From Hemileia vastatrix (Eukaryota; Basidiomycota; Pucciniomycetes; Pucciniales; Zaghouaniaceae), in the NCBI GenBank assembly GCA_030280995.1, contig JASXTE010000005.1, forward strand, positions 29,370,501-29,434,500: a stretch of 64,000 bases of DNA, given 5' to 3'. A model generated the notes under the pieces. It saw only the letters and a list, made by a program, of their open reading frames with translations, had not been told where the DNA came from and did not search any database. This document shows positions 25,400 to 49,250 of this stretch, piece after piece (position 1 is the first letter of the stretch; each line of letters starts with the position of its first letter). The position numbers and the translations under genes were made by a program.

Positions 25400-27804
25400 A
25401 TGTCTAGAATTAAAAATCCTGCACATCCACTTTGTATGTGTATCATGCTCCTCACTCTTAATTTATATATTTCACTTATGTTCTATATCTTTTTTTTTCA
25501 AAAAAATGATTTTCCAGCACCTGAATGTTTTCAATCCCACTCTCATATTGATACTCGCTTTGAAGCTTTTCAGCTTGCACCATGTCTGCCACATGGCATG
25601 GCACCTAGCCCTAGTGTACTTAGCATTGAGAGACAGGAAATAATGAGAGTTCAGTATCACAATTTACTTGAATTGTCTAGAGATAAAATGGAAGAACTTT
25701 TCAAGATCCTTAACAATAATCTTTCTCCTTCATATTTATTTAACCCTTGTAACGACTTACTCCAATATGTGAAAAACCTTGAAAAATGTATGTTCTTCAC
25801 TTTTTTTGTCTCCTTTTAAATTAGTAGATAAGATTATTAATATTTTTTTTGTCATATATATTTTTAGCTTAAGAGGAGGGTGTGATTTATCCTGATGATT
25901 TCATTGTCATTAGGGATGATGATGAGACAGATGAACCATCAGCTTCAACTCATGCTTCAACTTATAAGGAAAATCTTGAAAAACCTGTTATCTGCTCCAA
26001 GAAAAAGAAATTATCCCAAGGCTCCTCTTTTGTTTGACGTATTAAACCGGCTTCTGCTAATGATTTTTCTGATGTATCAAATAATAAATCTCAAAAAAAA
26101 AGCAAAGGCTTTAGTAATGAGTATATTCTTGATTCCTTTTTTTATTTTTATTCTTTTATATTTAAAATTCTATCATATATCTTTTTTATTGCTTACATAT
26201 TGTACTTAATATCTTTCTTTTGATATTTTGTACCAAAAACTCACCTACCGTAGATTTTTCCATCCATAAACACCCTCACCCTGATGAAGATGATGAAAAG
26301 AGCAATGAAAATAGCAATGATGAACTGTCATATTATGAAGCTATGCTTGCTCATCAAAACAAGAAAACTTTAAAATATTCTTCAAGACACGATGATATGT
26401 TTGATAAAGATGATGATTCAAACAGCTCATCACCAAATTCCTTCATTTCTAAAAAGCAATACCCATCACCTCCTAAATTACCTACTTTGACCTCTTTGAA
26501 AGCTTCTCTACCAATGAAATAAACTCCAATAATGATACCAAACAAACCTCTAACTTATTCACCCTCATTTCTAAAATACTCTGATTTGTAGGAGGAATTC
26601 TGTAAAATTCATAAATTTTATAAAGGTAGAATCAGCACAGAAAAGGTCCTTAGGTTGTGGTTGGAAATTGTTACTCTTCTTGAATTATGCTCTTCTACTT
26701 CTTCCCAAGAAACCATGTTAAATATTCCAATGTTTACTTTTCATTGGGAAAAATCTTGTGGAGAAGATTGGCTTTCAAAACTTACTGAGTTATGTAATTT
26801 ACCATAATTTTAGTCTTAAATTTTTTTCCTTTTGTAGCAAATTTTTTTTTTAGAGATTGATAGCTCACAGCTATGGGTACTCAATAATATTGATTTCAAA
26901 AAAATGGAAGATTTATGTGATCCTGATGGTTTAAATACTGAAATTCTTTCCTCAAAAAAGAAAAGAGATCACCTTGAATCCAATCTTATCCAAATGCTCA
27001 TGAGTTTAATGATCCCAAGTGATCACTGCTGTTCTTCATGGGTATCTCATATATCATCTTCACTTTATCTGACCACACATGAGTTCAGCCAGCTTCCATC
27101 ACATCAAAAAATTAACTCAGATTGTCCAATTGAACGTGGTCTTAAGCTTCTAGCTTGCCTTTCAAATCTGAAGAGGCCGATTCCTGATGGCTTAGAAGTT
27201 GCTTCCACTGCACTTCAAACCTGTGATATATCAATGTCAACTCTTCTTCAAATCAGCAACATTATCATTGAAATAATTATGTCAATTATCATTCTTAAAT
27301 CAAAATATTGTTCTGCAACAATATCAAGTGGCAAGACTAGCAAAGCTCAACAATCAAGTCAGAAAAATGAAAATACTCAACTTAATATAATGGAACAGAA
27401 ACAAAAGGCTGCACTAAACAAGATAAATTCTGAATTCTCCCACCACCAATATCAATCTTTCTTATTCTATATAATTGATGGTGTCCCTGGTTTATTTCTG
27501 AGCTCTCAAGATCATAGATTGGCTTCAGCAGCTGATTGCTTGTAGGTGATATCAGAAATTAAGTTTCTTAATTTACATGAAAAAAAATCATTTTATGGAA
27601 GAAATAATTTGGAGAAATTTAAATAACTATATTTTAACATTAATAAAACCTTTTATAGGGAAGTGTGGTCCATTTCCTTTAAAATTTGATACCCCAAGTC
27701 CTCCAAGAATAGCTAGGGCTATTTCTGCAGATTTTATTAATCACTTGAGCTCCATTCATCCAATATCACCTTTTTTTGCTAAACATAGCCTTTCAATAAA
27801 TTAA
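25400..27804 (+). pseudogene. Multi-exon pseudogene, unknown family
   Basis: Exons by splice sites and frame: 25400-25433; 25518-25787; about 25868-26120 (in-frame TAA near 25870, TGA near 26034); about 26250-26522 and onward to about 26791 (TAA at 26520, TAG at about 26589); about 26855-27545; and about 27661-27804, ending at TAA. Introns are short with GT and AG ends (for example GTATGT at 25434, TTTCCAG at 25517). The protein would start with a His/Pro-containing segment and LSIERQEIMRVQYHNLLELS. It then has an acidic, Ser/Lys-rich middle, a segment KVLRLWLEIVTLLELCSSTS, and a larger domain with EIDSSQLWVLNNIDFKKMED and SWVSHISSSLYLTTHEFSQL, ending RIARAISADFINHLSSIHP. I do not recognise it. 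Several stops show decay. It faces the Tet-like oxygenase pseudogene (tail to tail), so both may have been cargo of one DNA transposon. Confidence 0.55.
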
Positions 27805-31190: not shown

Positions 31191-32290
31191 TTTTAGATAA
31201 TCCTATAGTACTAGCTATAGGCCTTGACCAAGAGAGTTAGAGAAAAAACCAGAGAGAAAATCCCCTGTCCCTTTAGAAAAATATAACTGAGACTTACCTG
31301 CTACAGTAAATTGGTTCCTGTTGCTAAAAGCCCCTTTTCTAATACACTTTACTGCCTGATCAGCCAAGAAAGTAGTCTCCAGACAGACTAAAAAACCAAA
31401 AAACTTAAATTTAGACCAATGTCCACACCAGAGAAAGAAATGATACTTGATTTAGGTTGCAAATCCACACCAGAGACAGCAATAATACTTGATATAGCTT
31501 GCAAGACTACAACAGAGAAAACAGTTGCCAAAGTTGAGTTAAATGAAGAACTAACCTTGCAACAAACACAGCCAATTGTGGCCATAAAACAGTTAAAACT
31601 GAGTGAGGAACAAGGATATCACCTCCAGATGGTTGTATTATAATTAAGGTTGCCCCAAACTGTCTTCTTCACTATATACACACAGACCACTATCTAAGAG
31701 CCCATGCACACCTACGAATTTGGCGTTTCTGAGAACCAAATTGTATAAAACCCCTCTAGAAACACTTCCCAGCCTTCTAGCACTGAGGCCGGCGGTCTGC
31801 CCAACATTGGGAGGCCCGCCTAAAGCGGCAGAACCACCCTGAAGCCAGAAAACCACCAAAAACCACCAAAAACACCCAAAATACATAGAATAATAAACTA
31901 TGATTACTAAAACCTTTAAAGCACATAATTAAGCTACAACAACATCGTTACATGAAACTTAGAGAAAAATTAGCCCATTATAAAGGTACTAAGCACTTAA
32001 ACCTAAGACTTAAGGTCAGCCCATAAAACGCGAAAAAAAATTAAACAGCTATCTTTTAAAATGAAAAATGAGAAATAATCCCTCAAATACTTAGAATATG
32101 AAAAATTTCATCAAGACAAAAATTATATAAAAAAACCAGGGCTATCCAATTGTTATATCCACATCCCCGCAGTCCTAATATTTGTCAAATAATTCCAGAA
32201 AAACACCCAATTATTGAACAATGCCATTTAAGACATATCAAAACAACGCCAAACAGACCAACAAAGGGCTCCGCCAATGTTGGAAGACCA
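31191..32290 (-). repeat. 3' LTR of family-A element
   Basis: A 1100-bp LTR. The left edge TTTTAGATAATCC corresponds to TGTAGACAATCC of the copy at 44124. The right edge is GGAAGACCA, that is TGGTCTTCC on the minus strand, preceded there by the polypurine tract GGAGGGAGGATT. A less AT-rich block lies near 31780-31830. The antisense gene begins 84 bp beyond its inner edge, so this LTR may also promote plus-strand transcription. Confidence 0.82.
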
Positions 32291-32684
32291 AATCCTCCCT
32301 CCAATAGAAAATGTCCACATTCTCCTTCATCAAAACCTCCATTTTCACCTTCCTCTCCAAATCTGCTACTGAAATGGGTTCTTGCCAATACTGCATTGAC
32401 AACAACCTCATCTGTACCATAACACCTCCAGCTCATCCCTACAGAACCTCCTGTGATGCCTGTCACTCTAGGAGGAAGACTTGTTTCAGACCTGGTCCAT
32501 TGTCCTCTTCAACATCTTCTTCTCTTCCACAACTCAATCCACCTTCCACCAGCACCAAAAGATCCAGACCATCCATACTGATCCCCAGACTTGCCAACAA
32601 ATTACACCCTTCAAAAAAGAGTGCCAACCCTGCTACAAAAGCTAGCTCTTCCATCCCTGGCCCTTCTAATGGTAAGCTCAATAC

Positions 32685-33457
32685 TGTCACCGGACAACCT
32701 ACACACAAGGTCGAGGATGTTCCTGAAAGTGAGATGAGGGCTTTAGAAATTTCTTCGAAGCACAGAGGAATGATTCGAGGAAATGGTTTGAAGATCACTC
32801 AAAGTAAGAGCTACAGGTTCGAGGTTCGTTCGAGAAGAATTATAAACTAGTTTCAAAGGTAATAGGAATTCTTAAGATCTCACAAAGGGTTGGGAACTCA
32901 ATAATCAAAGATTTAGGATTTAGAAATGAATTTTGAGAAAGTAAAAGAAAGATACAATAACAATGATTTTAACTTTTAAAGGTTTACCACTATTAATTTA
33001 AATACAATTTTATAATTTAATTCTAAGGAATATCAAACCAAATACCCAACCCCTTTTATATCCTTTGTTCCTCCTCACATTGACCTCCCTTCCATCGCAC
33101 CATTCCCATTCCATTGACCATTACTAACATACACTTAGACCCTCTTCGCTAAATATGGGTCCATGCTCAATTTACCCCTTTTTAATTAATTAACAAAATT
33201 TTAATGAAAACTACTACTGTACTATTTTGTTGAACCTAGTGCTGTGCGTCACTTATTGTAAAGGACTAAGGCACTCTATTGGGAGATTGACTAATTTAGA
33301 TTTAGAGTTTAGGCTAGCGCAGTTAAATAGTAAGTACACAAAGGAAAATCGCAGTTGCTATGGAGAATTGCTTTCTAGGCTTCGAGTATAGATTTAGGAC
33401 TTGATATTATTGATTTAATGAGCTGCTTTCGCCTCGAGTGTCACGTGGCGCGTGAAA
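32685..33457 (-). repeat. 3' LTR of G2 element
   Basis: A 773-bp LTR, the same length as the copy at 1066-1838. The inner edge reads GCGTGAAA where other copies have GCGTGACA. I see no clear polypurine tract beside it. The antisense gene begins 111 bp further in. Confidence 0.88.
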
Positions 33458-33567
33458 GATGCCCGGGTATAAGAATTGCAAACTCCGTTGAGCTTGAGAC
33501 ATCTTCCCACACTAGTTTCCCTTCTTCTAATAATTTTTTCCTCACTTATTAATTTCTCTTTTTTATA

Positions 33568-34491
33568 ATGAACTGCCCCACTCCCACACCTACGCCTCCA
33601 CACCCTAAAGCGGATGGGGGAATGATCACGCAACAGTTTTCACAAACTTGCACGGCTTGTGAAAGCATGGAGTATTTCTGTGTCGAAAGTACAGCGACTC
33701 GAGACCCTCACCAGAAATTCAAGTTTTGCCGTTGGCGACGAGTGGCGTGCGATGTGTTGACAAAGAACGCAGAGATCCAAAAGTGATTCACCAAGACCAA
33801 GTTTTGGGTAATCCCTTAAACCAAAGAGGTGGTCGAAGACATTTGGGATGTCTCGATTGAAGATGAACAATCGGTAGGGGAAAATGATAAGGAATTAAAT
33901 AATGAGATCTCAACCTGGGTAACCCAGGCCACAAGTTTGAAGCGAGGTGTCGAGGAAGAGGTCGACGAGTTGGTGGAGGAAGATGAAGATGAAGTCCCTG
34001 TTCCAGGGCGGGCACCCAAGAAACGACAGGTGGTCATCGAAGACGACGACGAGGAGAGAGAGGCAGAGGTCGAAGTGGCGCCAAGGTTATTTTTAGAGCC
34101 TGACCCCATCTTTGAGGTAAGTTTTAATTGTTATTTTTTAAGGATGAAGTTACTGATGAGTTATGTTTAGACATCAAATACCCTTGAAGAGCCAATTGGG
34201 GAGCCTGCGCCGGTTATACCAACTGAGGCATACCCTCCCGCCATGGAAGTAGTTGAAGAACCTGAAGACACCCTGGACCAGGTGTGGTCGAAGAAACCTC
34301 GTCAAGGTCGATGAGTAAGGTTCGCGGAAGAATTATGTGGGGAGGTCGACACAATTATCGACGCTGCTTCCTTTGACGTGGCAGAGGAGCTCTTGGAGAT
34401 GGGAGTGGTTCCGGTAGGAGAGGAGGAGGTATTTGAGAAATGCAGGAAGGATATAAGGGTAGTTTTGGAGAAAATGAAAAGATTGGTTTGA
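33568..34491 (+). pseudogene. Antisense zinc-cluster gene of family G2
   Basis: On the strand opposite to gag-pol, beginning at the ATG at 33568. The protein starts Thr/Pro-rich, then has CTACESMEYFC, 12 residues, and FKFCRWRRVAC: the same CX2CX6C-X12-CX2CX6C layout as family A, except that the fourth Cys is Phe (TTC, 33718-33720). An acidic region with VEEEVDELVEEDEDEVPVPG and a KKRQVVIEDDDEE stretch follows. A 54-nt intron, 34117-34170 (GTAAGT, CTGAT, TTTAG), leads in phase to an exon ending at TGA, 34489-34491, with EELLEMGVVPVGEEEVFEK. Stops at 33784-33786 (TGA), about 33820 (TAA) and in exon 2 after KPRQGR show decay; all three are one change from a sense codon. It looks like a nuclear acidic protein with a DNA-binding zinc cluster. 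Function unknown. Confidence 0.65.
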
Positions 34492-34829
34492 GAGAAATTA
34501 AAAGAAAAGATTTGAAATGAAAAAGAGATGTAAAGAAGTAGAAAAAAATTTGTTTTTTAGTTTTATTTATTTTTTTTTTTATTTTATTTTATTTTTTTAT
34601 TGTAGGTGAATTATTATTAATTTTATAAGATTTGGGAGAGAGAGAAAAAGAAAGAAGAAGTTTAAAATAAAAAAATTTTAGAATTTGAAAGAAGAAATTT
34701 AAAGAAAAAAAAAGGTTTTTTAATTGAAGGAAGTTTTAATGTTCTAAAAGGAAAATTTTATGAAAGAAAAGAGAGATAAAAAGAAACGGTTTTGTGATTG
34801 AGATGAGTTTGTTAAATTGAGGATTTAAT

Positions 34830-34861
<32 letters not shown>

Positions 34862-35460
34862 GAAATTTTAGTTGTAAAGAGAGGAAGAAGAAAGAAAAGA
34901 AAAAACAGAATTTAGAATTTAAGAGAATTTAAAAAGAAGAATTATTTGTTTTGAAGAATTATTATAGGGAGATTTAGAGGTTGAAGTTGAGTTCAAGGAA
35001 ATGATCGTGTCGTACAAGATTTGATGATTTGAAGGAAAGAAATTTTTTAAAGAGAGAATAAATTTTTAGAAAAGAAATTTTTAAAAAGAATTTTAAATTT
35101 AAGAAAAGAAATGAATTTAGAGAATTGAAAAAGAAAAAAAAAGAAAATATTTAGAGAGATTTAAGAGTTTTTTTTTTTATTATTATTTATGTTTATTCTA
35201 TTTATTTTATTTTATTTTATTTTTATTTTATTATTTATGTTTATTCTATTTTTTTATTTTTTTATTTTATTTTATTTTATTTAATTTTAATTTTGATTTT
35301 ACTTTTAGTTGGTTTTAGAGAAAAATTTTATAGAAGGAGAAGAAAGAAAAAGAAGAGAGAGAAAAAAGAAAACAAGGCTAAGAAATTTAAGAGGTGTTTT
35401 AGATTTTTTTTTTACGAGAAAAAGAAAGAAAAAAAAATAAAAAAGAAAATTTAAAATAAA
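34492..35460. repeat. Purine-rich/pyrimidine-rich asymmetric tract
   Basis: About 1 kb in which the plus strand is built mainly of A and G (GAAAGAAAAGA-type runs) broken by runs of T and TTTTA pentamers (about 35190-35290). It lies between the ends of two convergent frames, the antisense gene and pol, so it may hold both 3' untranslated regions. No coding is seen. Confidence 0.6.
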
Positions 35461-35467
35461 AGAAATT

Positions 35468-38400
35468 TTAAGGTTTTGGTGTTAAAGGATATTTCAAATG
35501 AAAAGATTTTAGGAGTTCAGGGGTTTTAGAAACATTGATGGCTGGTTCCCAGGATGTTTTGTCTGAGTCATTGAGGAAGTCTTCCCATTCCACGAGGTAT
35601 TGAAGTTTCCCCTTGCGTATTATTGAATCAAGGATACGACTTACTTCCCACTCTAGATGATCTTCTACTTCGACCGGTTCTGGAGGGGGTTGGTTCTTGC
35701 CCAGGTATATTTCTCGAGCCAGTTCCAGGAGAGATACATGGAAAACAGGGTGAATCGCCTGCCATTTAGGAGGTAACTTGAGTCGAAATACAGTTTTAGA
35801 GACTTCAGAGTCAATTTCGAAAGGTCCCAAGCGCTTTCAGCCAGTTTCTTTGATGGTCTTGTTGTTCGAATGTTTCGTGCGTCGAGCCATACTTTGTCGC
35901 CTGGTTTAAAGGAAGGAGCAGATTGTCGATGTTTGTCGGCCTGTTCCTTGTATCTTCAAATCTCTGATTCCAAATTTGTTTTAAGTTCTTCTTGGAGTCG
36001 TGATATAGTTCGAAGATAATGTTCCGCAGGATGATTAGTTCCTACATGGATTGAGTTGAATCGAGGATGTTGTCCATAAATGGTTTCGAAGGGGTATTGT
36101 CATGTTGAAGAATGAGTCGAGTTATTATAAGCAAATTCGGCCAATGGTAACCATGTGGTCCAATCATCTTGTTGGTAACTGACATACATTCGAAGATATT
36201 GTTCGAGGATTTGGTTAACTCTTTCTGTTCGACAATCGGTTTCAGGGTGATAGGCCGTGGAGAGATTCCTCGTGATATTGAGTTATCGACACAGTTGGGT
36301 CCAGAATGTGGATACAAACAATGAGCCTCTATCTGAAAAAATATCATTTGGTAAGCCATGTTTAGAAAATACATATTCTAGAAACAATTTTGACAAATCT
36401 TCTGCTGTAGCAGTAGTAGTGGTTTTAATGAAAATAGACATTTTTGAAAATCTATCTACTATTACTAATATAGCATCAAAATCATTAGACATAGGAAGTT
36501 GAGAAATGAAATCCATCGATAAAGATTCCCAAGGTTTAGAGGGAATAGGAAGTGATTGAAGCAACCCATGCTTCCGGTGACGGGGAGCCTTATTCCTATT
36601 ACATTCGTAACAAGCTTTTATATAGGCCTTGATTTCCCTGTTCATACCTGGCCAGAAGAAATCCCTTGCTATTAACTGGTAGGTTTTATCAACCCCAAAA
36701 TGACCAGCTAATGGAGAATCATGTCGACTGTTGAAAATCCATAATTTTATCTCATTGTTGTCGGGTATGACTACTCTACTTTCGAAGACTAATAGACCTG
36801 ATTCAATACTAAATCTTTTGGCACCTTGCTTCAAGAGTATTTTGTCTTTTAATCCTAAACAATATTCGTCCTTCGACTGAGCTTCGAGGATGTTGGATAG
36901 TGGATTTCGAAAAGATTGAATTGTCATTGAATTAAGTTGATGAGTCGTTAACATTGATTCGTTGAAGATTGATTGCACATTTGCTGTGTTCTTGTCAGCA
37001 AAAGTGTCCCCCCGCTGTGGGTAAATGTCGTCCCGACGTGACAAGATATCTGGGACAATGCAGTTTTTTCCTGGGCGATAGGAAATAGAGAATGAAAATT
37101 CAGACAAAAATTCATCCCACCTGGCTTGACGCCTGGTTAACACTTTAGAAGACATGAAGTATTTCAAAGCATTATGATCTGTTAAGATTTGAAAAGGACT
37201 ATCTAGGCTGAGAAGAAAAGAACGCCATTTTTTAAGACAATGGATAATAGCTAAAAGCTCTTTGTTGTGAATTTCATAATTTAATTCTGCGGCTATGAGT
37301 TTGCGTGACTCCAAAGCAACAGGATGAAACAAATTTGTTTCAGGATTTAATTGGGAGATGACCCCTGCAATAGCATAATCGCTTGCATCCGTCTCAACTA
37401 TTGTCAAGGCAGAAGGATCAAAATGTCGAAGAATTGGGGCTGTGGTGAAAGCCGTTTTTAGTGCTTCGAATTCCTTTCGTGCTGTGGAAGTAAAAACAAA
37501 AGGGATGTCTTTTCTAAGAAGAGAAGTAAGATTGGAAATAGTTCTAGAGTAATCTTTAATAAATCTCCTATAGAAGTTTGCAAAACCCGAAAATCCTTGG
37601 AGCGATTTAATTTTTTTGGGCTCAGGCCATTCCAGGATTTTCTGGACTTTGTTGTTATCCATGACTAAACCATCAGTGGATAAAGTTAAGCCCAAAAAAT
37701 CAATTTATTTGAGATGGAATTCGCATTTATTATGCTTGGCGTAGAAACCATGATCTTGAAGACGATTTAGGACCTGTCGAACATGATGAATATGTTCATC
37801 TAGTGTTTTCAAGAATATTAAAATATCATCTAAATAGACGACTACAAATTGTTCAACAACATCTTGAAAGATATCATTAACAAAAGTTTGAAAAGTTGAA
37901 GGTGCGTTACATAATCCAAAAGGCATAACTAAATATTCAAAACTACCAAATCTAGTGCGCATTGCAGTCAGTGGTTCATGACCTTCTGCAATGCGAATCA
38001 GATTGTAAGCGCCTCTAAGATCAATTTTAGAAAAGAAATTAGCACCATTGAAAAGGGTAAGAAGTAATGACATAGGAGGAACAGGATATGCATTCTTCTT
38101 CGTGACTGTGTTGAGCTTTCTATAGTCAACACACCAACTAAGACTACCGTCCTTCTTTTTTACAAAGAGGACAGGGGAGCCGGTTGGAGATTTACTGGCT
38201 CTGATGAAACCTTTGGCTACATTCTCTGCAATGTAGTCTCAAAGAACTTGAGATTCGTCCTTCGATAAGGAATAGACAGGACCTGCCGGAGGTACTTGGC
38301 CTATTAACTCTATTTGATGGTTGTAGAGTCGATGAGGTGGTAACTTATCGGCCTTGCAGATTGAGAAAACATTGAGGAAGTTGTGGTATATTTCCGGTAG

Positions 38401-40301
38401 AGTTGATTTAATGGCTTCAAAGTTGATTTGGTTGTCCTCTTCATCTTCGAGAGAATCTGTCGAGGGGATACCTGTATTGAGAGAGTAGAATTTGATTACT
38501 TCGAGGCAATTAAAATCCTCTTCAAGTGAAGTCATCGAGCTAGAAGAGTTATCCAATTGCTCATTTAGAGAAGAATCAGATGCTTGCAAGTCATCTGGCA
38601 GAGACTTGTCCTCTAGCAGGACGTTGTCAGGCGGGTTGTTTAACTCCCTATTGACCTGCATTGAAGAATCAGAAATATACTTAGATCGTGGGGTGATCAA
38701 TCCCTTAGTCCAATCAATTTCGGGATTCCAATGCATTAAAAAGTCATGGCCAAGAATGGTATCGTCCATCCTTGGGGCGTCCAAGACTGATAATTCCCAC
38801 TCGAAGGGGGGGAAGTTCGGAAAGTTGAAAACCCATAAAACTTTCTTACTTACCCAATATTTGGGTTCCTCTGATTTGACCAAATAGATTGGAGTTCGAT
38901 CGATATCTGTAAATTTTAGTTGAAGCTTCTCGGCAAAAGATAAACTAACAAAAGAAATTGAAGCTCCAGAGTCTATAAGACAACTGAAGGGGATATCCTC
39001 CTTAAAAAGAATGAATCTCAAGCGGTTTAAGGCAACTCCAGTCCTTAAGACATGGAGGTTCTGTGCACTGGGAGAGATAAGATAGTTTGCCTTGCACACA
39101 AGTAAACTATCTACTAGTTTTTTGACTTCGAACTAGTACCTTCTCTTTCCTTCAACTTTACACAGTCTTCCAACTTGTGCTTACCCCCACAATACATACA
39201 TAACCCATTATCTGCTTGTCTCTTCCTCTCCGCTTCTTTAAGTTCCCCTTTAGGATCCAGTACTTTGCTGATATCTCCTGGGGTCGAGTCTTTTGGTCGA
39301 GGTTTATCCTTTCCCTTATTGGGTTTGGATTGAGTCGAGGAGGATTGATTTGGTTGTGGGTGTGAAGAAGGTCCCGATTTAAAATTTAAGCCTTGAGATT
39401 TGTTGGTATATTGACAATGTTGAAGTCGTCCTTGATGAACGCCGACAAGTTCAAGGGTTCAATCCATTAAATCCGTTAAAGTAGTCATCTTCTGACCGTG
39501 AAGATTTAATTGATCTAGAATCCTCGAAGGAAGTCCTTTCTTGAAATGATACTTAAGGGCAGCATCATTCCAACCTACTCGAGTTTGAAGTGCTCTGAAG
39601 TTTGAGATATATTTAGAGGCTTTACCATTATCACTCATGTGAAGAAAATCAAGTTCAATTTCTGCTTTGTCCATTTCATTAGGGTCTCCAAACAACGTAA
39701 AAAGTTGGTCTTAGAAATTTTCCCAATTATTGATAAGTAAGTGAGTTTCTGTCGAAGAAAGCATGAGTAGATAAGGTTCGAACCATCTTGCTGCTTTCCC
39801 GGCTAGGAATGAAGAAGCGTAAACAACCTTTGATCGGTCGCTGTTAAAGGTTCGAGGGTCATTATGGAACAGTAGCTTGCAGGTTTGCAAGAAGGGTCGC
39901 AATCTGTCGGGGTGATCTCCGTCGAATTTGTCAGGAGATTTCATAGAAGGAGTTTTAAACTTAGATCCCTCTGAAGACGTTGGATTTGAAAGGGTTTTCA
40001 TAAAAAGTCTCATGAAATCTTCCAGAGAGTTAGATGGTCCAGGTTCTGAGGATTGGCCAGAAGGGTGATTGGCAGGGGCAGATGGTGCCTCGTGCATTGT
40101 ATCCTCTCCTTCTTTTTCATCACTAGAATCCTCAAAATCTTGTGGGATGTCTTCTATAGATTGAACTGAATGTTGCCGTTCCCTAAGGTTGAGTGGTTCC
40201 AAAGAGTGAGTGCGGGAAACAGAACTTGTGGCTGTTGGCCTGCCTCTAGCGCGAGCTCTAGTAGTAGCACCTGTAAGAGGAGTGCCTTGAACAGGTGCCA
40301 T
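35468..40301 (-). pseudogene. Broken gag-pol with chromodomain, G2 element
   Basis: In order on the minus strand: Gag from the ATG at 40301; zinc knuckle CMYCGGKHKLEDC (about 39180); protease with LIDSGAS (about 38985); reverse transcriptase with VYLDDI (about 37835); RNase H with ETDASDY (about 37390) and DHNALKYF; integrase HHCC with SPLAGHFGVDKTYQ and CYECNRNK; integrase core with SMDFISQLP and FSDRGSLF; and a chromodomain WEVSRILDSIIRKGKLQYLV (about 35580-35650). Breaks: a frame change near 39715, loss of frame near 39455, and stops near 39100, 38237, 37703, 36282 and 35838. The Gag is the same as at 1-994. Chromodomain and motif order place it in the chromoviruses; its divergence from G1 shows a separate family. 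Confidence 0.92.
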
Positions 40302-40314
40302 TTAAAATTTTAAA

Positions 40315-41069
40315 ACACAAGGTCGAGGATGTTCCTGAAAGTGAGATGAGGGCTTTAGAAATTTCTTCGAAGCACAGAGGAATGATTCGAGGAAATGGTT
40401 CGAAGATCACTCGAAGTAAGAGCTACAGGTTTGAGGTTTGTTCAAGAAGAATTATAAACTAGTTTCAAAGGTAATAGGAATTCTTAAGATCTCACAAAGG
40501 GTTGGGAACTCAATAATCAAAGATTTAGGATTTAGAAATGAATTTTGAGAAAGTAAAAGAAAGATACAATAACAATGATTTTAACTTTTAAAGGTTTACC
40601 ACTATTAATGTAAATATGATTTTATAATTTAATTCTTAGGAATATCGAACCAAATACCCAACCCCTTTTATATCCTTTGTTCCTCCTCGCATTGACCTCC
40701 CTTCCATTGCACCATTCCCATTCCATTGACCATTACTAACATACACTTAGACCCTCTTTGCTAAATATCCGTCCATGCTCAATTTACCCCTTTTTAATTA
40801 ATTAACAAAACTTTAATGAAAACTACTACTGTACTATTTCGTTGAACCTAGCGCTGTGCGTCGCTTATTGAAAAGGACTAAGGCACCCCATTGGGAGATT
40901 GACTAATTTAGATTTAGAGTTTAGGCTAGCGCAGTTAAATAGTAAGTACACAAAGGAAAATTGCAGTTGCTATGGAGAATTGCTTTCTGCGCTTCGAGTA
41001 TAGATTTAGGACTTGATATTATTGATTTAATGAGCTGCTTTCGCCTTGAGTGTCACGTGGCGCGTGACA
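40315..41069 (-). repeat. 5' LTR of G2 element, inner end deleted
   Basis: 755 bp matching the 773-bp LTRs. About 19 bp at the inner end and the roughly 55-bp leader seen at 1011-1065 are missing, so gag begins only 13 bp away. The outer end GTGACA is followed by the target duplicate AATAC. Confidence 0.88.
40665..40672 (-). promoter_or_regulatory. TATA box in G2 5' LTR
   Basis: The minus strand reads TATAAAAG, at the position corresponding to 1433-1440 in the left G2 copy. Assignment by motif and position only. Confidence 0.5.
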
Positions 41070-41339
41070 AATACTTCTTCATACTTAAATTCAATCTGAC
41101 CAATTTCCAGTTCATTCTAATCCATACAGTGATGATGACAATGTGGAAACCCTTGAAGAACCCCCACCTAATAGAAAGTCCAGTCCAATGATATGATCAC
41201 TGGGCGGGCTCCCTACAATAAATAAAAATGATGGGAGACCACCAGTGATCCCCCACTAAACCAAATAGACAATAGAAGCCTGTCCCAAGCCAGTAAGCCA
41301 GTTTAAAGCCATAGTGGACTTGAAACCTGAATAACAAAA

Positions 41340-42005
41340 ACCAGAACTAGGATTCAACTAGGAGAAACAAAAATACTTGAAACAGACATTTTGGGGTAAC
41401 TGCTCTACAGAGCAGCCAGCTCATCAGTTACCCCCACACTTTCCAAAAAAAAATCTAGAAGCCCCCCTGGGTACCTTCTAACAAAAAACAAAATCCAACA
41501 CATTAACACAAAACCAATAAGTGTGAAAAGTCCGGTACTTGAAAACCAAAAGAATTTCCAGTTTAAATTCATAGAAAGCTAAAACCCTGTGAAGAAAAAC
41601 CAATCCTAGGGTTCAACCAAATTAAGAGAAGGGGTTGGAAACAGACAGTCTGGGGTAGCTGTTGATAGAGCAGCCAACCCATCAGTCACCCCCACACTTT
41701 CCAAAAAAAAACCTAGAAGCCCACCTGATACCTTCTAACAAAAAACAAAATCCAACACATTAACACAAAACCAATAAGTGTGAAAGGTCCGGTACTTGAA
41801 ACTCAAAAGAATTTCCTGTTTAAATTCATAGAAAACTAGAAACCTGTGAAGAAAAACCAATACTAGGGTTCAACCAAATTAAGAGAAGGGGTTGGAAACA
41901 GACAATCTGGGGTAACTGTTGATAGAGCAGCCAGCCCATCAGTCACCCCCACACTTTCCAAAAAAAAATCTAGAAGCCCCACCCATGGGTAACCTCTAAC
42001 AAAAA
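41340..42005. repeat. Tandem repeat, about 257-bp unit, nearly 3 copies
   Basis: The block containing CCCCCACACTTTCC begins at 41431, 41689 and 41946, that is 258 and 257 bp apart. Each unit holds TTGATAGAGCAGCCAGCCC and CTTCTAACAAAAAAC blocks. It sits in family A between the antisense gene and the end of integrase. A related single block lies at about 46090-46190 in the second copy, so the unit belongs to the element. The short stretch 41197-41339 before it holds nothing I recognise. Confidence 0.8.
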
Positions 42006-42083
42006 GTTTCCAAAAAAACAGATGCACAGCATCACCAAAATCCAAAATTAAAGAATGGTCCATAGTTTACTCTCATTGCAGAG

Positions 42084-44123
42084 TCAATCTTCTTCACCTT
42101 TCGTGCCTCTAAGATAAAACCTCTTAACCTTATCTGAAGACACTCTCTTCTTTAAGACTGCGCCATATAACTCCTCCAAAACATAAGAACCTCCAGACAC
42201 CTGAGATCAGATTCTGTAAGGTCCATTCCATCTTTCAGAAAACATCTTTCCCCACTGACTCTCCAAACTTCTATAATACACCAAAACCAAACAACCAGGT
42301 TTCAAGGGTTTCCTGAGTCTTTGAGTCAACTTCTTGTTCCAGTATCTGACTGATTGATTTCTTATCTTCATCATTCTAGAGTATGCCTTCTCTTGACATT
42401 CCTCTTTACATTCCAATTGTTGCATCCTGGCACAAAGCAAATCTTCTGTTGAGCATATATCATCCCAATCAATTCCAAGATGAGAGACAGCTTCCAAATC
42501 CACTGGTAGAAAAGCTTTCTGCCCAAAAATTAATTCATAAGGGAAATAGCCAGTTGTCATTTTCACAGTGACCCTATCAGTAAATAACACCAAGGGTAAA
42601 CAATGCCTCCATTTTTCAGCACTATCTCCACACATTTTCACCAAAGCATTTTTAATAACTTGATGGCCTCTTTCAACCATTCCTTCTGCTTCAGGATAAT
42701 AAGGTGTAGCCAACCTGATTTTGCAACCAATACTTTCCACAGCTTCTTTGAATTCAGCTTGAAACTCTGGCCCACCATCAACAGTCACCAACTTCATCAA
42801 TCCATACCTAAATACCCATTCCTTCTTCAAACATTCTGTCACATTTTTGGCAGTCAAATTAACCAGAGGCACCGCCTCAACCCAACCAGACAAATCATCC
42901 CTAGCAACAAACAAGTATTTATACCTGCCCTCTTTGATATGGACAGCATCCAAACTGACTCTTCCAAACACAGTTGTTTCACCAGTAGCACATCCAACCT
43001 CTTTAGGTTTCAAGTGACTTCTTCTTTGACATTCTTCACAAGATTGAACACATCCCTGCACAGCCAACTACATACCTGGCCAACAAAATCTATCTGCTAC
43101 TCTTCTATAAGTCTCCCTGAAGCCTCTATGACCAAGGTTTTCATGCAAAGATTTCAAAACCAATTATTGACCCTTCTTCTGAGGCACCACCAATTGAGGA
43201 TTTGGTTGTCTCCTCTTCATAAACCTCCTTCCTGACACATAAAAGCCAGGACTCTTCTTCTTGATTGCCACCCAAGTATCATCATTACAAGTATCTGGCC
43301 TTTCTAAGTTTAACAGATATTCAACAATCATAAAATAAAACCCAATCTGACGCCTAGTATCATCTTCAAAATCCAACAAAACAATATCCAAGGGTACAAC
43401 CCTTTCATCAAAATCTCCAGTGTACACATGAGCAATACAACCAGCCCATCCAGGACACCCATCCCTAAACTTTTATACCTTCTTTTTCTTCCACTGAATC
43501 TTAAGTAAATCCAGTTCACCAAAAAAACAATATTCTCCGATTTTAAGCCATCCAAAACAACAGCCCCATCTTCATCAACAAAAAAATCCTGATCACCAGA
43601 ATCAAGATTAGAACTATCCAGTTTAACCTCTTGGTGGAGGCAAGAGCAATCATCCAGTTTAGCCTCTTGTGGGAGGAGAAAAATCTTCAGCACCCTTTGT
43701 GCTGGCACTAACCACTGAAGCATCTTCATTAAATTCTTCAGAATCAGAATCTTCATCTGTGGGTGGTCTTCTTGATAATCCTTCTGGCATTGTAAACATC
43801 TCATCTGGCTTGTGCACCAGGTCAAAAGAAAAATATCAAATAAATGCCTCCCACCTAGTCATTGGAGCATTTGTAAGACTAGGTGTTTTGATAATTTGAA
43901 CCAGAGATATAGCATTCACCTGCAACTTGAAATGCTGCCCCCACAAAACAGTTTTTAGCTTCTTCAAAATTTTTGCTACACCACACAATTCCAATTTTGG
44001 CTGAGAATACCTAGATTCCACCTCATTAAAAACTGCAGACTCATACCTTACTGGCCTGACCTTCCCAGCTTTATCTTCCTGAGATAAAACAGCACCAGCA
44101 GAATTATAACTTGAGACCACCGC
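42084..44123 (-). pseudogene. RNase H and integrase of family-A retroelement, truncated
   Basis: The minus strand reads RNase H remains (SSYNSAGAVLSQEDKAGKVR, then RYSQPKLELCGVAKILKKLK) from 44123. A tether with LVHKPDEMFTMPEGLSRR follows, then the integrase zinc finger (HENLGHRGFRE, CEECQRR) and the integrase core with SLDAVHIKEG, VTVDGGPEFQ and YYPEAEGMVERG, ending with SSDKVKRFYLRG before TGA at 42084-42086. Stops lie near 43067, 43160, 43430 and several places at 43470-43670. The 287-codon open part at 42207-43067 covers the catalytic core. No chromodomain is seen, so this is a different gypsy lineage from G1 and G2. The second family-A LTR cuts it at 44124, removing the start of RNase H and everything upstream. 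Confidence 0.85.
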
Positions 44124-45194
44124 TGTAGACAATCCTATAGTACTAGCTATAGGCCTTGACCAAGGGAGTTGGAGAAAAACCAGAGAGAAAATCCCCTGTC
44201 CATTTAGAATAATAGAGTGAGATTTACTTGCTAAAGTAAGTTGGTTCCTGTTTTGCTAAACCCCTTTTTCAACACACTTGACTTCTTGATGAGCCAAGAA
44301 AGTAGTCACCAGACAGACTACCAGACCAAAGAACTGAATTGTAGACCAATGTCCACACCAGAGACAGAAAAGATACATGATGTAGGCTGCAAATCCACAC
44401 CAGAGACAGCAATAATACTTGCTATAGCTTGCAAGACTATAACAGAGAAAACAGTTGCCAAAGTTAAGTTAAATGAAGAACTCACTTGCAACAAACACAG
44501 CCAATTGTGGCCAGAAAACAGTGAAAACTGAGTGAGGAACAATGAGATCACCTCCGGATGGTTGCATGATGATTAAGGTTGCCCCAAACTGTCTGATTCA
44601 CTATGTACACACAGACCACTATCTAAGAGCCTATGCACACCCACAAATCTGGCGCCTTAACCCCCCAAATTGAATAAAAACCCTCCAAAAGCGCTCCCCA
44701 ACCTTTTAAAGCAGAGGCGGGCGGGCCGCCTGAAGCGGCCCGGCCTCCGTGAAGCCAGAAAACCAATAAAAACAAATAATCTACTTAGAAAAATTAGCTA
44801 CAACTACTAAAACCTTTAAAACACGGAATTTCACTATAACAACTTTGAGACATGAAATATAGAGAAAAATTAGCCCTATCCAATGGTACTAAGCACTTAA
44901 CCCTAAGACTTAAGGTTAGCCCGTAAAACACAAAAAACAAAATTAAACAGCTATCTTTTATAAATGAAAAATGAGGAAATGACCCCTTAAAACTTAGAAT
45001 ATGAAAAATGTCTACTGGAGATAAAATATAGAGAAAAACCAGGGCTATCCAATGATAGTACCCACATACATGCAGACTCAATATCCACAGAATAAAACCA
45101 GAAAAATACCCAATGCTTTAACAGATGTCAATTAAGACATGCACAAACAGCGCCAAATCACACAACAAAGGCCCCAGCCAATATTGGAAGACCA
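44124..45194 (-). repeat. LTR of a second family-A copy
   Basis: 1071 bp, TGTAGACAATCC at 44124 to GGAAGACCA at 45194. The minus strand shows a polypurine tract GGAGGGAAGATG beside the inner end. It contains a GC-rich hairpin GGGCCGC-CTGAA-GCGGCCC near 44735 in an otherwise AT-rich LTR. Its partner LTR is not identified; the LTR remnant at 48690-49025 is closer to the left family-A LTR. Confidence 0.8.
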
Positions 45195-45277
45195 CATCTT
45201 CCCTCCAATTAAGAATGTACACATTCTTTCTTCATCAAACCACCATGTTCAACCTTCTTCCCAAACATGCCTCTGAA

Positions 45278-45885
45278 ATGGGTCCTTGCCAATACTGCAT
45301 TGATAATAATCTAATCTGCATCATCACACCTCCTGTCCATCCATACAGAACGTCCTGTGATGTCTTCCAATCCAGAAAGAAGACCTGCTACAGACCTGGT
45401 TCATTATCTTCTGCAACAGATTCACCTCCACCTCAACCTGGTCCATCTTCTACCAGCTCCAAAAGATCTAGGCCATCCATCCTTATACCCAGATTAATCA
45501 AAAAGCTTCACCCTTCCCAGAAGAGTGCCACAACCCATAAAACAACCAGTTCCACCATCCCTGGTCCATCTGATGGTAAAGAACTTTCATTTCTTCCTTC
45601 AACTTTAAAACTGATGACTTCTCAGTTCCACCATCTTCTGATAGTGATGATAACAATGTAGGATCCATTGCACCACCAACACCAAACCACTTGTCCACTA
45701 TCAAGGCCAAGTTCCAACAACACAAATCTCAACAGAAACAACTTCTGCTTCACTACTTTCAATCCACTCCTGCTAGAGATCCACAGGAAATTGAGAACAG
45801 AAGACACCTCATTCACCAGTTAATGGATAATTCTGAACACTTCATTTCATCTCTAGTTTCCCTCTGTAATTCCACTAGTACTTGA
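45278..45885 (+). CDS. Antisense zinc-cluster gene, second family-A copy
   Basis: Exon 1 is 45278-45575, the intron 45576-45625 (GTAAAG, CTGAT, TTCTCAG), and exon 2 45626-45885. Spliced, it is an uninterrupted 185-codon frame. The N-terminus has CQYCIDNNLIC, 12 residues, then CDVFQSRKKTC, so the fifth Cys of the cluster is Phe here (45365-45367). A Pro/Ser-rich linker with SKRSRPSILIPRLIKKLHP follows, then an acidic SDSDDNN stretch and a C-terminal charged helix with KAKFQQHKSQQKQLLLHYF and EIENRRHLIHQLMDNSEHF. The intron is at the same place as in the copy starting at 32374, which supports genuine plus-strand splicing. It lies 84 bp inside the LTR and opposite in strand to gag-pol. A nuclear regulator or chromatin-binding role is possible; nothing direct shows it. 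Confidence 0.65.
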
Positions 45886-45945
45886 GTTTGATTCTGAAAG
45901 GAAAAATTGACCACACCCTCTATAGGATGTAACCACAAACAACCC

Positions 45946-46445
45946 TCAGTTTTAAGTCTTGGGGGACCATCCTCATTTTATAGTCTTGGGGGACTCAAAA
46001 TCCCTCAGTTTAAAGTCTTGGGGGACTCAAAAACCTAAATCAAAAACCCAGAACCAGAGATCAACCACATTAAGACTATAGAAAAAACTATCTTTATGGG
46101 GTAGTTGTGAATAGAGCTGCCAGCCCATAAATTACCCCCAAACTTACCTTTGCTAAATTTGGAGGCTCCCCCTGTGGATACCCTCCATTAATCTTTCAAA
46201 ACCAACTCCAACAACAAAACCTATTCCTCAGTTTATAGTCTTGAGGACTAAACCAACAACCATCCTCAGTTTAAAGTCTTGGGGGACTAACACAGTGTTC
46301 AGTTTAAAGTCTTGAGGGACTAATCTTGATAAAGTCTTGAAACCAGCCAGTTTAAAGTCTTGGAGAACTACCAGAAACCCGATTTCAATTTAAAGTCTTG
46401 GTGGACTGCTCATGATACCAGATTTCAGCTTAAAGTCTTGATGGA
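45946..46445 (+). repeat. About ten short direct repeats, AAAGTCTTGGGGGACT type
   Basis: Copies of CAGTTTAAAGTCTTGGGGGA, more or less changed, occur near 45946, 45976, 46006, 46224, 46266, 46298, 46330, 46346, 46384 and 46424, about 30-40 bp apart within two clusters. Between the clusters (46080-46200) is a single block related to the 257-bp repeat of 41340-42005. It lies directly downstream of the zinc-cluster gene. Confidence 0.75.
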
Positions 46446-46568
46446 CTGAAGGAATTTTGCATAAAATAGACGCAGCCAACTTCATAGAGAATACCTCTAC
46501 ATCCAACCTGCTGAACTCCCACCTTAACTTTATTATCTACCCATCACTGACAAAAATCTCCTTCCTAT

Positions 46569-46828
46569 CACTACGCAATATAGGGGGTGGACTTGCTAGC
46601 AAGTCCTCAACCTGAACTCAGATGGAACTCAGATGGAACTCAGACTGAACTCAGACTGAACCATACTGAACTCTACTTGAACACCCACCTAAAACTGTTC
46701 TGCTGAGTGGTGTTCATCCCTGATTGTATGGTTCCTTTATCAATAGCTCAATGTGTGTTCAATCTATGGTGAGTTTGGGTCCAAGGTTGCGGACTTGCTA
46801 GCAAGTCCGCCCCCCATATTGTGTGGTG
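46569..46828. mobile_element. CACTA-type MITE, 260 bp
   Basis: Terminal inverted repeats of about 45 bp: the left end starts CACTACGCAATATAGGGGG and the right end, read inward, starts CACCACACAATATGGGGGG. Both continue into the palindrome GGACTTGCTAGCAAGTCC. The 3-bp target duplicate TAT flanks it (46566-46568 and 46829-46831). CACT ends and a 3-bp duplicate are typical of the CACTA (En/Spm) superfamily. The inside has four tandem GAACTCAGAYTG-type repeats and no coding, so it must be mobilised by a partner element. It lies 35 bp before the ATG of the next gene, in what looks like its 5' untranslated region or an intron. Confidence 0.78.
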
Positions 46829-46862
46829 TATCTCTTTCCATCATCTTTTCTCACCACAGATC

Positions 46863-48436
46863 ATGGCTGGATCCCCTGATGTTGACCCCTCTACTCTTCC
46901 TTGCTTCACTGCTCCCAAGGACTATGCCTGTAAACAGTGCATCCACATGTGCAGACCTTGCACATTCACTCTTCCAACTCCTGAAGCCAAATTCTACAAC
47001 AGGGCTTGTTATTCTTGCTACTCAAAAAGAAAAAATGTGACAGAGATGCCAACTACCCTATTCCTCCTCCTTCACCTACTCATAAATACATCTCCAGATC
47101 CCCTACCAGATCCCTAGAGCTTGATCCTTTCTCTTCCTCTTTATCTTCAGCGCCTTCCAGAAGATCCAGAAGTTCAGCTTCCAGAACTCTTCCTAAAAGA
47201 CCAGCCTTAGCTTCCCAAGAAACTGCTTTTATCTCTGCTAAATTAGCTCCAAAAGCTTCAAAATAAGCTCCTAGGCTTCCAGACCGCGTCCAGGCCGCCC
47301 TCCCGCCTCACTAGACAGTGAAAATCAGGCTCAAAACCTCCAAAAACAACCAGAAAACAGCTAAATTTAATCAATCAACGAAAGCAACTCTATGCAATTA
47401 CCTCCCACTGCTCCCAGAGAAATGCAGCCAACCCTTCCAAGGTCCAAAAACTCCAAATTTTCTCAAACTTCTAGTAGACCTGCCAGAGGACCCCAGCAAG
47501 AAACTTGAGCACCCAACACTGCACCCAATCAACAACTTTGTCCCCAGTTAAGACAACAAAACTACACCTCTCCTCTGTCAGCCAACAATTCTTCTGACAG
47601 TTCCATCCCTTCAAAAGCTCCATCCAGAAGAGATCAATCAGCTTACAAATCACCCTCTCCTGCTCCATCTTTTAACAACCCTGGTACTCCATCACCAGCA
47701 CCTCCTCCAGCTTAATCCAACAGAAATATCAACCACAACAACAACAACAATCCCGCTGCTCCAACTAGGCCCCAGGAACATCAGCCTCCTAGTTCACCTT
47801 CTCAAAATCTTTCAGAGGAAGACCAAGAGAATCCATATCTTTCCCTGATTTATCCACCCACTATGACCATTCCAAAATCTTCAGAAGTCCAAATTCGGGC
47901 TTCTTACAAATTTGATGAGCTTCCAATCTGTAAGTACCAAATTAATTCATCCCATTTCTTTAACAAAAATAATCACTGATCCAATTCTTCTTGTCTAGTT
48001 GACACTTCTCCTCCTGAATCTACTATTGGAGTTGGCCAACCTCTAGAAACTTTTTTGAACCTGGATTATGGAGACATGAAAAAAAAACCTAAGCACCATG
48101 TGTTCCAACATGCTAAAAGCCTTTGCCCTCAATGGACATTTGAATGACTTTGAAAAATCCTTGAGAAAGCGCCTGTTGGACGACCACTGGAAGACGTCTA
48201 AGATCATTAAGCACAACTTCCAGCACTCCATTCCTGCCTCTTCTTCTTCCTCCTCTGAACTTCCCTCTAATCCAATTCCTGCCCATTACAATCCATATAA
48301 TCTCTCCAGAAGGATGCACTTCAAAGAACACAGTTCTTCCCACAATCCCAAAAAAAAAAAAAAAAACGACATCATAATCCAGACCAGCCTCCAGAAGCTT
48401 CATCATCCAGACAATGAGCTCCTTCAAAATGATTAA
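46863..48436 (+). pseudogene. Larger zinc-cluster-type gene with frame changes
   Basis: From the ATG at 46863 the frame gives CKQCIHMCRPC, 15 residues, then CYSCYSKRKK. After a slip in an A run near 47028 the sixth Cys follows in KKKCDRD. This is CX2CX6C-X15-CX2CX6C with the basic half second. A long Ser/Pro/Arg-rich part follows (RRSRSSASRTLPKRPALASQ) with a stop at 47264-47266, then an Asn/Pro-rich part and YPPTMTIPKSSEVQIRASYK. A 69-nt intron, 47930-47998 (GTAAGT to TGTCTAG), joins in phase to DTSPPESTIGVGQPLETFLN. After another slip in an A run near 48080 come NGHLNDFEKSLRKRLLDDHW and a Lys-rich end stopping after 48436. Slips in two homopolymers and two stops argue for decay, although sequencing error in A runs is possible. 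Function unknown; the layout echoes the smaller antisense genes. Confidence 0.5.
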
Positions 48437-48689
48437 AAAAAATATAATTATAAATAAATAATAAAAACAATTAACCACTATAAATTCACAATTTTTTTTT
48501 TTAAATCTACTAATATACTAAAATTAAAAATTGATAAATAAAATAAAATAAAAATAAATGAAGTAAAATAAAATATAAAAAATAATACAAATGGTATCCC
48601 CCAGCCAATTGATGAGCTGATCCCCTGATACCTTGCCCACATCCAAGTGCCCGTTGATGTGGGTACACCTTAAAAAAATTTAAAAAAAA
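48437..48689. other. AT-rich stretch with two small hairpins
   Basis: Low-complexity A/T, then two adjacent inverted repeats near 48594-48670: GGTATC with GATACC, and CCCACATC with GATGTGGG. No gene seen. Confidence 0.5.
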
Positions 48690-49025
48690 TTTGAAAAGAA
48701 AAATTAGCCGTATTGAATGGTACTAAGCACTTAAACCTAAGACTTAATTTTAGCCCATAAAACGCAAAAAAAAAATTAAACATCTATCTTTTAAAATGAA
48801 AAATGAGAAATAATACCTCAAATAATTAGAATATAAAAAATGTCATTAAGACATAAAATCTAGAGAAAAACTGGGGATTTCCAATAGTAATACCCACATC
48901 CCCGCAGTCCCAATATTGATTGAATAATTCCAGAAAAACACCCAATTATTGAACAATTCCATTTAAGAAATATCAAAACAACGCCAAACAAACCAACAAA
49001 GGGCTCCACCAATGTTGAAAGACCA
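48690..49025 (-). repeat. Truncated family-A LTR
   Basis: 336 bp matching the last third of the LTR at 31191-32290 at most positions and ending GACCA at 49025. It is clearly closer to that LTR than to the one at 44124-45194. Its left two-thirds are gone. I read it as the 5' LTR of the outer family-A element. Confidence 0.75.
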
Positions 49026-49250
49026 CACCGTGTTTTCTGTAGCTAAAAAACATACACTCATCACATTTAAATTTACATTTTGTCAAAATTATTTCATTTT
49101 CAAATTTATTTAAAGGGAACCATAATGTGCACCACCTATTTCTAAAATATGAACCTCCCCACCATATTAAATTGGTAGATTTTTAATTGTGCAGTTTTTT
49201 TGCCCTGACCTTCTTCCTGATCTTACTTGGCTCAAAATATCAAAACATGG

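What the first reader, a model, noticed from the sequence alone, without database searches (positions are those of the whole stretch)
32374..45885. Antisense, spliced zinc-cluster genes inside LTR retroelements of two unrelated gypsy families
Three genes (32374/41111, 33568-34491, 45278-45885) lie on the strand opposite to gag-pol, 84-111 bp inside the 3' LTR. All encode CX2CX6C-X12-CX2CX6C, and each is split by an intron of about 50 nt. Families A and G2 differ in LTRs, pol and presence of a chromodomain, so the same accessory arrangement was gained twice or exchanged. I know of antisense frames in some plant gypsy elements, but not of a spliced zinc-cluster gene of this kind.
Basis: partly seen in the sequence, partly recalled or inferred. 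Interest (0 to 1): 0.88.

Follow-up and report, generated by a model that had tools for sequence, protein, structure and literature searches.

The report
Antisense zinc-cluster genes in fungal retrotransposons
Two distantly related families of jumping genes in a large fungal genome each carry extra, intron-containing genes that run backwards relative to their other genes, have been kept by selection, and encode proteins with a zinc-cluster-like motif whose two halves seem to be in swapped order compared with the usual fungal kind.

Summary
The finding is real. Family A (chromodomain gypsy, window 32685-41069) and family G2 (31194-44126 and 44126-49027) carry zinc-cluster genes between pol and the 3' LTR, antisense to gag-pol, each with a predicted ~50-nt intron. 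One extant G2-type copy elsewhere (L042/L091/L092) shows both genes opposite to integrase, RNase H, RT, protease and gag. Window copies are partly decayed: only 32374 keeps all six cysteines. ATG and splice sites recur in 28 of 28 A copies and nearly all of 60 G2 places. Differences between subfamilies are much poorer in amino-acid changes than within-subfamily singletons (ratios 0.34, 0.30, 0.16 for A, G2, G3; p 2e-8 to 2e-10): purifying selection. The clusters resemble fungal Zn2Cys6 with halves swapped: swapped pieces match PF00172 in one stretch and score higher; the evidence is good for G2/G3, which are related to each other, and weaker for A. Antisense accessory ORFs here are known (plant Grande, Retand; fungal Boty brtn), so this is a new variant of a known kind. 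Most likely nuclear DNA-binding regulators of the element; expression, zinc binding and DNA binding are untested.

The parts
32685..41069 (-). Family A gypsy element (chromodomain type), inserted in the intron of the G2 copy 1 antisense gene; direct repeat AATAC at 32680-32684 and 41070-41074
32685..33457 (-). Family A 3' LTR
40315..41069 (-). Family A 5' LTR (96.5% identical to the 3' LTR over 753 bp)
33468..33473 (+). TATA-like TATAAG, 100 nt upstream of the antisense ATG, just inside the LTR edge; TATAA at -99 to -101 in 20 of the 22 other A copies printed
33568..34116 (+). Antisense gene A, exon 1 (zinc cluster, NLS-like PKKR, acidic region); window copy has a stop at codon 73 and lacks the 4th Cys
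34117..34170 (+). Predicted intron of gene A (54 nt, GT..AG, phase 0)
34171..34491 (+). Antisense gene A, exon 2
35468..39132 (-). Family A pol region: protease, RT, RNase H, integrase, chromodomain, spread over several stop-to-stop frames in this copy
39711..40301 (-). Family A gag (DUF4939; weak Ty3_capsid match)
31194..32290 (-). G2 copy 1, 3' LTR
32374..32671 (+). G2 antisense gene, copy 1, exon 1; all six Cys present (32383-32484); an in-frame ATG also lies upstream at 32311
41111..41196 (+). G2 antisense gene, copy 1, exon 2 beyond the inserted A element, ending early
41298..42005 (.). Tandem repeats between the antisense genes and pol in G2
42207..44126 (-). G2 copy 1 pol remnant (integrase core identified)
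44126..45196 (-). G2 LTR bordering copies 1 and 2 (80.6% identical to 31194-32290 within a 1501-column alignment that also includes exon 1)
45278..45575 (+). G2 antisense gene, copy 2, exon 1 (5th Cys lost)
45576..45625 (+). Predicted intron of G2 gene copy 2 (50 nt, GT..AG, phase 1)
45626..45885 (+). G2 antisense gene, copy 2, exon 2
46863..48436 (+). Second antisense zinc-cluster gene (G3), zinc cluster near the N terminus; predicted 69-nt intron 47930-47998; frames broken in this copy and 6th Cys missing
48697..49027 (-). Truncated G2 LTR at the far end of copy 2

Best explanation
These are accessory genes of Ty3/gypsy LTR retrotransposons. They lie between pol and the 3' LTR and are read on the antisense strand. 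In A the likely start is a promoter at the edge of the 3' LTR with a TATA box 100 nt before the ATG; after one short intron is removed, a small protein is made. Each protein has an N-terminal six-cysteine cluster that looks like a half-swapped Zn2Cys6 domain, basic NLS-like stretches and a low-complexity or acidic part. Shown: position, strand, conserved frame and splice sites, purifying selection, resemblance of the halves to Zn2Cys6 in swapped order (good for G2/G3, weaker for A). Inferred: antisense transcription and splicing, nuclear location, zinc and DNA binding, and a role in trans as a regulator of LTR transcription, integration or copy number (compare retroviral HBZ and what is proposed for plant Retand TRP28 proteins).
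For: 28 of 28 A copies and 60/60/58 of 61 G2 rows keep ATG/GT/AG. Between-subfamily N/S against singleton (N+stop)/S: A 99.5/121.5 vs 213/89 (p=6e-9); G2 52/62 vs 329/116 (p=2e-8); G3 19/45 vs 215/80 (p=2e-10). Differences per site at codon positions 1, 2, 3 and intron: G2 28/176, 17/179, 68/176, 21/41; A 49/287, 37/290, 138/280, 16/45. LTR edge 56-85 nt before the G2 ATG in 55 of 59 loci, and G3 follows on the same strand in 51 of 59, so the genes are integral. One extant copy has both genes opposite to integrase, RNase H, RT, protease and gag. PF00172, natural vs swapped pieces: G2 21.1 vs 29.0 bits, A 14.0-14.1 vs 20.6, G3 15.6 vs 21.2; Gal4 goes the other way, 48.5 vs 37.6; swapped residue-shuffled controls match in 1 of 9 (14.6 bits).
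Against: No expression data. The full-length A protein (L006) has no PF00172 match at E<=1 and full-length G2 (L042) only 18.3 bits, below the cut-off; the swapped A piece, 20.6, is also just below 21. Four of six halves tested alone gave no match. G2 and G3 clusters are related, so there are two independent lines of evidence for the swap, not three. The structure model had pLDDT 54 and supports nothing. CGG/CCG triplets, the usual Zn2Cys6 half-sites (recalled), are not enriched in the A LTR (2 found, 8.0 expected) and not clearly in the G2 LTRs (7 vs 5.9; 11 vs 5.6). The reverse frame that shares third positions also shows few N among the differences in A, G3 and, less so, G2. Every reverse frame has shared stops in both G2 exons, in A exon 2 and in G3, but one reverse frame of A exon 1 has none. 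16 of 28 A copies are interrupted before codon 290. TATAA was not seen in the A2 copies, whose -100 region was not fetched.
Confidence: 0.6

Rival explanations
1. The genes are conserved coding sequences, but the proteins act in the replication particle (nucleic-acid chaperone, or partner of gag or integrase, for example in nuclear import of the cDNA) rather than in transcription.
For: Zinc clusters and basic stretches can bind nucleic acid; PMC7264820 (section 7) raises nuclear import of the pre-integration complex for such proteins. The A frames scanned have no CX2CX4HX4C knuckle.
Against: The G2 copy L091 has a CCHC knuckle in its gag region, and the A frame 39114-39458 contains CMYCGGKHKLEDC, a near-knuckle. 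The swapped halves resemble a transcription-factor DNA-binding domain.
Confidence: 0.2
2. The selected product is an antisense RNA that controls the element through dsRNA; the open frame is secondary.
For: PMC7264820 discusses this for other elements (passage). A TATA-like site is conserved upstream of gene A.
Against: Selection follows codon positions and the frames are open across the intron; an RNA-only role predicts neither.
Confidence: 0.06
3. The genes are host genes, or parts of another transposon, captured recently and carried as passengers.
For: Nested insertions occur here (A inside G2). No relative was found in the protein searches for A or G2.
Against: Same place relative to the LTR in 55 of 59 G2 loci, present in both subfamilies of A and of G2, and under purifying selection between them.
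Confidence: 0.04
4. The clusters are not swapped Zn2Cys6 domains but another six-cysteine zinc fold, for example two separate CX2CX6C units, above all in A.
For: No usable predicted structure; modest profile scores; natural-order pieces of A and G3 and full-length G2 fall below the Pfam cut-off, and full-length A has no match.
Against: Given alone, the G2 first half matches profile 18-35 and the G3 second half 1-16. Swapped order gives one continuous match in all three genes; residue-shuffled versions match in 1 of 9.
Confidence: 0.3

Closest known systems
Antisense additional ORFs (aORF-3R) of plant LTR retrotransposons: Grande gene23, RIRE2, Retand (TRP28), PvRetro13 (PMC7264820, PMC11963269)
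   Same: Between pol and 3' LTR, antisense to gag-pol, present in most copies; some nuclear or predicted DNA-binding; [quoted passage not shown]
   Different: No TRP28 match here; zinc clusters instead; conserved intron; two related genes in one element; fungal host.
Boty-like elements of Botrytis cinerea with antisense gene brtn (Zhao et al. 2011, seen only as cited in PMC7264820 and PMC8365987)
   Same: Fungal gypsy element with an antisense gene between pol and 3' LTR.
   Different: I did not see the brtn sequence, so homology to A, G2 or G3 was not tested.
Fungal Zn(II)2Cys6 binuclear cluster (PF00172, Gal4 type)
   Same: Six Cys as two CX2CX6C halves, one of them basic; some halves match the profile on their own.
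   Different: Halves in swapped order; linker X12 (A, G2) or X15 (G3); natural-order scores mostly below the cut-off.
HTLV-1 HBZ (nuclear, critical in the virus life cycle, per the PMC11963269 passage; other details recalled)
   Same: Antisense gene near the 3' LTR; nuclear regulator.
   Different: bZIP rather than zinc cluster (recalled); unrelated protein; function here untested.

Membership tests
[quoted passage not shown]
   A in the window; G2 and G3 in the C502 copy; LTR edge 56-85 nt from the ATG in 55 of 59 G2 loci
Antisense aORF (aORF-3R) of LTR retrotransposons | Antisense to gag-pol | tested here: met
Antisense aORF (aORF-3R) of LTR retrotransposons | Conserved coding frame across copies | tested here: met
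Antisense aORF (aORF-3R) of LTR retrotransposons | Transcribed from an antisense promoter | not testable with these tools
   Only a conserved TATA-like site upstream of gene A was seen
Zn(II)2Cys6 cluster (PF00172) | Six cysteines as CX2CX6C...CX2CX6C | tested here: met
Zn(II)2Cys6 cluster (PF00172) | Collinear with the profile (basic half first) and above the gathering score of 21 bits | tested here: not met
   Natural order: G2 piece 21.1 in two stretches (best 3-19 on profile 18-35) but full length 18.3; A piece 14.0-14.1, full length no match; G3 piece 15.6
Zn(II)2Cys6 cluster (PF00172) | Two-zinc cluster fold and DNA binding | not testable with these tools
   structure model of low confidence
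Retand lineage accessory protein | TRP28 (Transposase_28) domain | tested here: not met
   no such hit for full-length A (L006) and G2 (L042), nor for the G3 pieces scanned
Ty3/gypsy | RT, RNase H, then integrase in pol, same strand | tested here: met
   A in the window and G2 in L091

The most novel reading that the evidence does not exclude
Two deeply diverged gypsy lineages in one fungal genome each maintain antisense-encoded, spliced transcription regulators built on a circularly permuted Zn2Cys6 domain, and one lineage carries a duplicated pair of them. This would be a new topology of a major fungal DNA-binding domain and a retroviral-style regulatory gene set in fungal retrotransposons that look very abundant in their host.
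Probability: 0.35. Interest if true: 0.8.

Novelty: new variant of a known kind. Interest (0 to 1): 0.64.

Why it matters
Antisense accessory genes of LTR retrotransposons are known mainly from plants and have no established function (PMC7264820). Here selection on the protein is measured in three genes of two lineages, and the proteins carry an interpretable motif, so what such genes do becomes testable. If the halves are truly swapped, it is also a natural permutation of a very common fungal transcription-factor domain. First-look candidate counts of 4063 (A), 3281 and 11624 (G2, two queries) and 6653 (G3), of which only the best 40 or 150 were scored, suggest that these elements fill a good part of a 748-Mb genome.

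Tried and rejected
Structure prediction on the two window G2 exon-1 proteins gave pLDDT 54, so no fold search was made. Protein searches with A and G2 found nothing, a PDB search with G2 neither. A control with the family B pol found 2436 proteins, with Puccinia striiformis entries among the 120 listed, so the database holds rust proteins; that query is long and well conserved, so the contrast is only a guide. A scan of viral contigs found no relative. CGG/CCG sites in LTRs: no clear enrichment. Two 18-bp palindromes upstream of G3 looked like a binding site but lie near the ends of a small insert that is absent from L018, the one other copy printed there. A PF00172 search of the genome gave 13 hits, one on C34 and 12 at coordinates below 111 kb of contigs not met as large ones in other calls (150 of 3258 candidates scored); inconclusive about origin. 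Family B, with at most about 90 nt between pol end and LTR repeat, has no room for such a gene. In L090 only the first 243 bp matched the window, so it did not show the rest of a G2 element.

Literature: 10 searches. Five of them (16, 17, 51, 61 and, apart from unrelated papers, 72) listed nothing useful; in the others no title or abstract start listed describes a zinc-cluster antisense gene in an LTR element or a permuted Zn2Cys6. One search listed 10 of 44 papers. The library omits most subscription journals.

Full report
Setting. The window is part of a 748-Mb, 791-contig genome. Chitin synthase 1 hits on large contigs (C26, C84, C502) and in none of 14 control genomes, and Puccinia striiformis and Phenoliferia among the named relatives of the family B pol, point to a fungus, probably a rust or a relative; the species is not known. 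The window holds nested gypsy elements: family B (gag-pol 7762-13149), family A (32685-41069) and two copies of G2 (from 31194 to about 49027).

Observation. The three reported genes are present, antisense to gag-pol. Exact six-cysteine spacing holds only at 32383-32484; the other two have each lost one cysteine. Family A lies inside the intron of the first gene, 13 nt after its start, with AATAC on both sides, which explains why exon 2 is at 41111.

Architecture. In family A the order is 3' LTR, antisense gene, pol (chromodomain, integrase, RNase H, RT, protease, read from the left), gag, 5' LTR. The window copies of G2 are incomplete, so one extant copy elsewhere was read in pieces (L042, L091, L092): LTR, G2 gene (+), G3 gene (+), tandem repeats, then on the other strand integrase, RNase H, RT, protease and gag (recognised by place and a CCHC knuckle; no Pfam match), then an LTR. 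In that copy the G2 frame is open to 180 codons, but G3 does not keep the full cysteine pattern. Over 59 loci (L009-L068 without L039, which is the same place as L001), the LTR edge is 56-85 nt before the ATG in 55, and G3 follows on the same strand in 51. Some copies lack pol; in L027/L089 minus-strand frames of unknown family, in the place of gag, lie before the next LTR with no pol found (one frame scanned, no Pfam match).

Gene models. A: 28 of 28 copies have ATG, GT, AG and a 549-nt exon 1; 12 of 28 are open to codon 290 or beyond. A TATAA lies 99-101 nt before the ATG in 20 of the 22 other A copies printed and in the window copy; the search string missed five further copies, which are not counted, and the corresponding stretch of the A2 copies was not fetched. 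In six copies of a divergent subfamily (A2) the intron is 76-77 nt in five and cut to 19 in one. G2: of 61 rows 60 have ATG, 60 GT, 58 AG and 47 the full cysteine pattern; 24 first stop at codon 185 and 13 at 180. Rows L039-L068 were chosen by exon-1 protein score, so openness of their exon 1 is biased; exon 2 and G3 were not selected for. G3: of 45 rows each of the six cysteines is kept in 33 to 45.

Selection. Differences between subfamilies (commonest base at 70% or more on both sides; 65% for G3 and the A2 side) were compared with within-subfamily singletons, which I take to have arisen mostly after insertion and use as the neutral yardstick. G2 (30 vs 30 copies): 52 N / 62 S, against 329 (N plus stop) / 116 S, p = 2e-8. 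A (28 vs 6): 99.5/121.5 against 213/89, p = 6e-9. G3 (24 vs 21, first 120 codons): 19/45 against 215/80, p = 2e-10. The ratios of ratios are 0.30, 0.34 and 0.16 (my arithmetic). Position 3 differs about as much as the intron (39% and 51% in G2, 49% and 36% in A) and far more than position 2. Among the other frames only the reverse frame that shares third positions shows a deficit of N: clear in A and G3, weaker in G2 (67/46, p = 0.002); the rest show none or an excess. Every reverse frame has stops shared by half or more of the copies in both G2 exons, in A exon 2 and in G3; one reverse frame of A exon 1 has none. So in A exon 1 the deficit alone does not choose the strand; exon 2, the intron, the ATG and the cysteines do.

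The zinc cluster. In all three genes the basic half (CDACHSRKKTC, CEFCRWRRVAC, CDSCYSKKKKC) comes second, whereas in Gal4-type clusters it comes first. Against PF00172 natural-order pieces give 21.1 bits in two stretches (G2), 14.0-14.1 in two stretches (A) and 15.6 (G3); swapped pieces give single matches of 29.0, 20.6 and 21.2 bits over profile positions 1-35, 3-36 and 1-37. Gal4 gives 48.5 natural and 37.6 swapped. Nine swapped, residue-shuffled controls gave one PF00172 match, 14.6 bits. Of six halves given alone, the G2 first half matched profile 18-35 and the G3 second half 1-16; the other four gave nothing. Full-length G2 (L042) scores 18.3 bits and full-length A (L006) has no PF00172 match. 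The G2 and G3 clusters are related to each other (44% over 39 aa, E 2e-6); A and G2 are not detectably so. I read this as a half-swapped (circularly permuted) Zn2Cys6 domain, well supported for G2/G3 and tentatively for A; without a structure it is an inference.

Mechanism. Most likely these are nuclear DNA-binding regulators of the elements, made from an antisense promoter at the 3' LTR edge. Shown: anatomy, conservation, selection. Inferred: transcription, splicing, nuclear entry, zinc and DNA binding. LTRs show no clear excess of CGG/CCG, so if the proteins bind LTRs the site may differ from the classical one.

Known ground. PMC7264820 (passages, and sections 5 and 7 read; [quoted passage not shown] PMC11963269 (abstract and passages) describes Retand with antisense TRP28 proteins that probably bind DNA and with tandem repeats in the same region, a close structural parallel. 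PMC8365987 (passages) mentions brtn in BcGypsy1. The word zinc does not occur in the main text of PMC7264820 or PMC11963269.

Verdict. Real, under selection as protein-coding genes, and a new variant of a known kind. Two origins or exchange between lineages cannot be told apart with the data at hand.

Noticed in passing
about 46583-46815: Small insert upstream of the G3 gene with 18-bp palindromes GGACTTGCTAGCAAGTCC near both ends (46589-46606, 46791-46808); absent at the same place in L018. Looks like a MITE.
   Followed up: partly
7762-13149: Family B gypsy gag-pol, one open frame of 1795 codons with chromodomain, pol end close to the LTR; named relatives include Puccinia striiformis proteins at 40-44% identity.
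   Followed up: partly
59467-63979: Array of repeats spaced about 600 bp apart.
   Followed up: no
40301-40315: In this A copy the 5' LTR lacks about 20 bp at its gag side that the 3' LTR and the copy at 1062-1838 have; gag begins about 13 bp from the LTR.
   Followed up: partly
L089:1138-2502 (-): G2-type copy with minus-strand frames in the place of gag and no pol found; the one frame scanned (1894-2502) matches no Pfam family.
   Followed up: no
25385-27545: Several + strand open frames of 107-235 codons; the largest (26838-27545) has no Pfam match at E 1e-3.
   Followed up: no
L091:560-985 (+): C-terminal exon frame of G3 in the C502 copy has no Pfam match.
   Followed up: no
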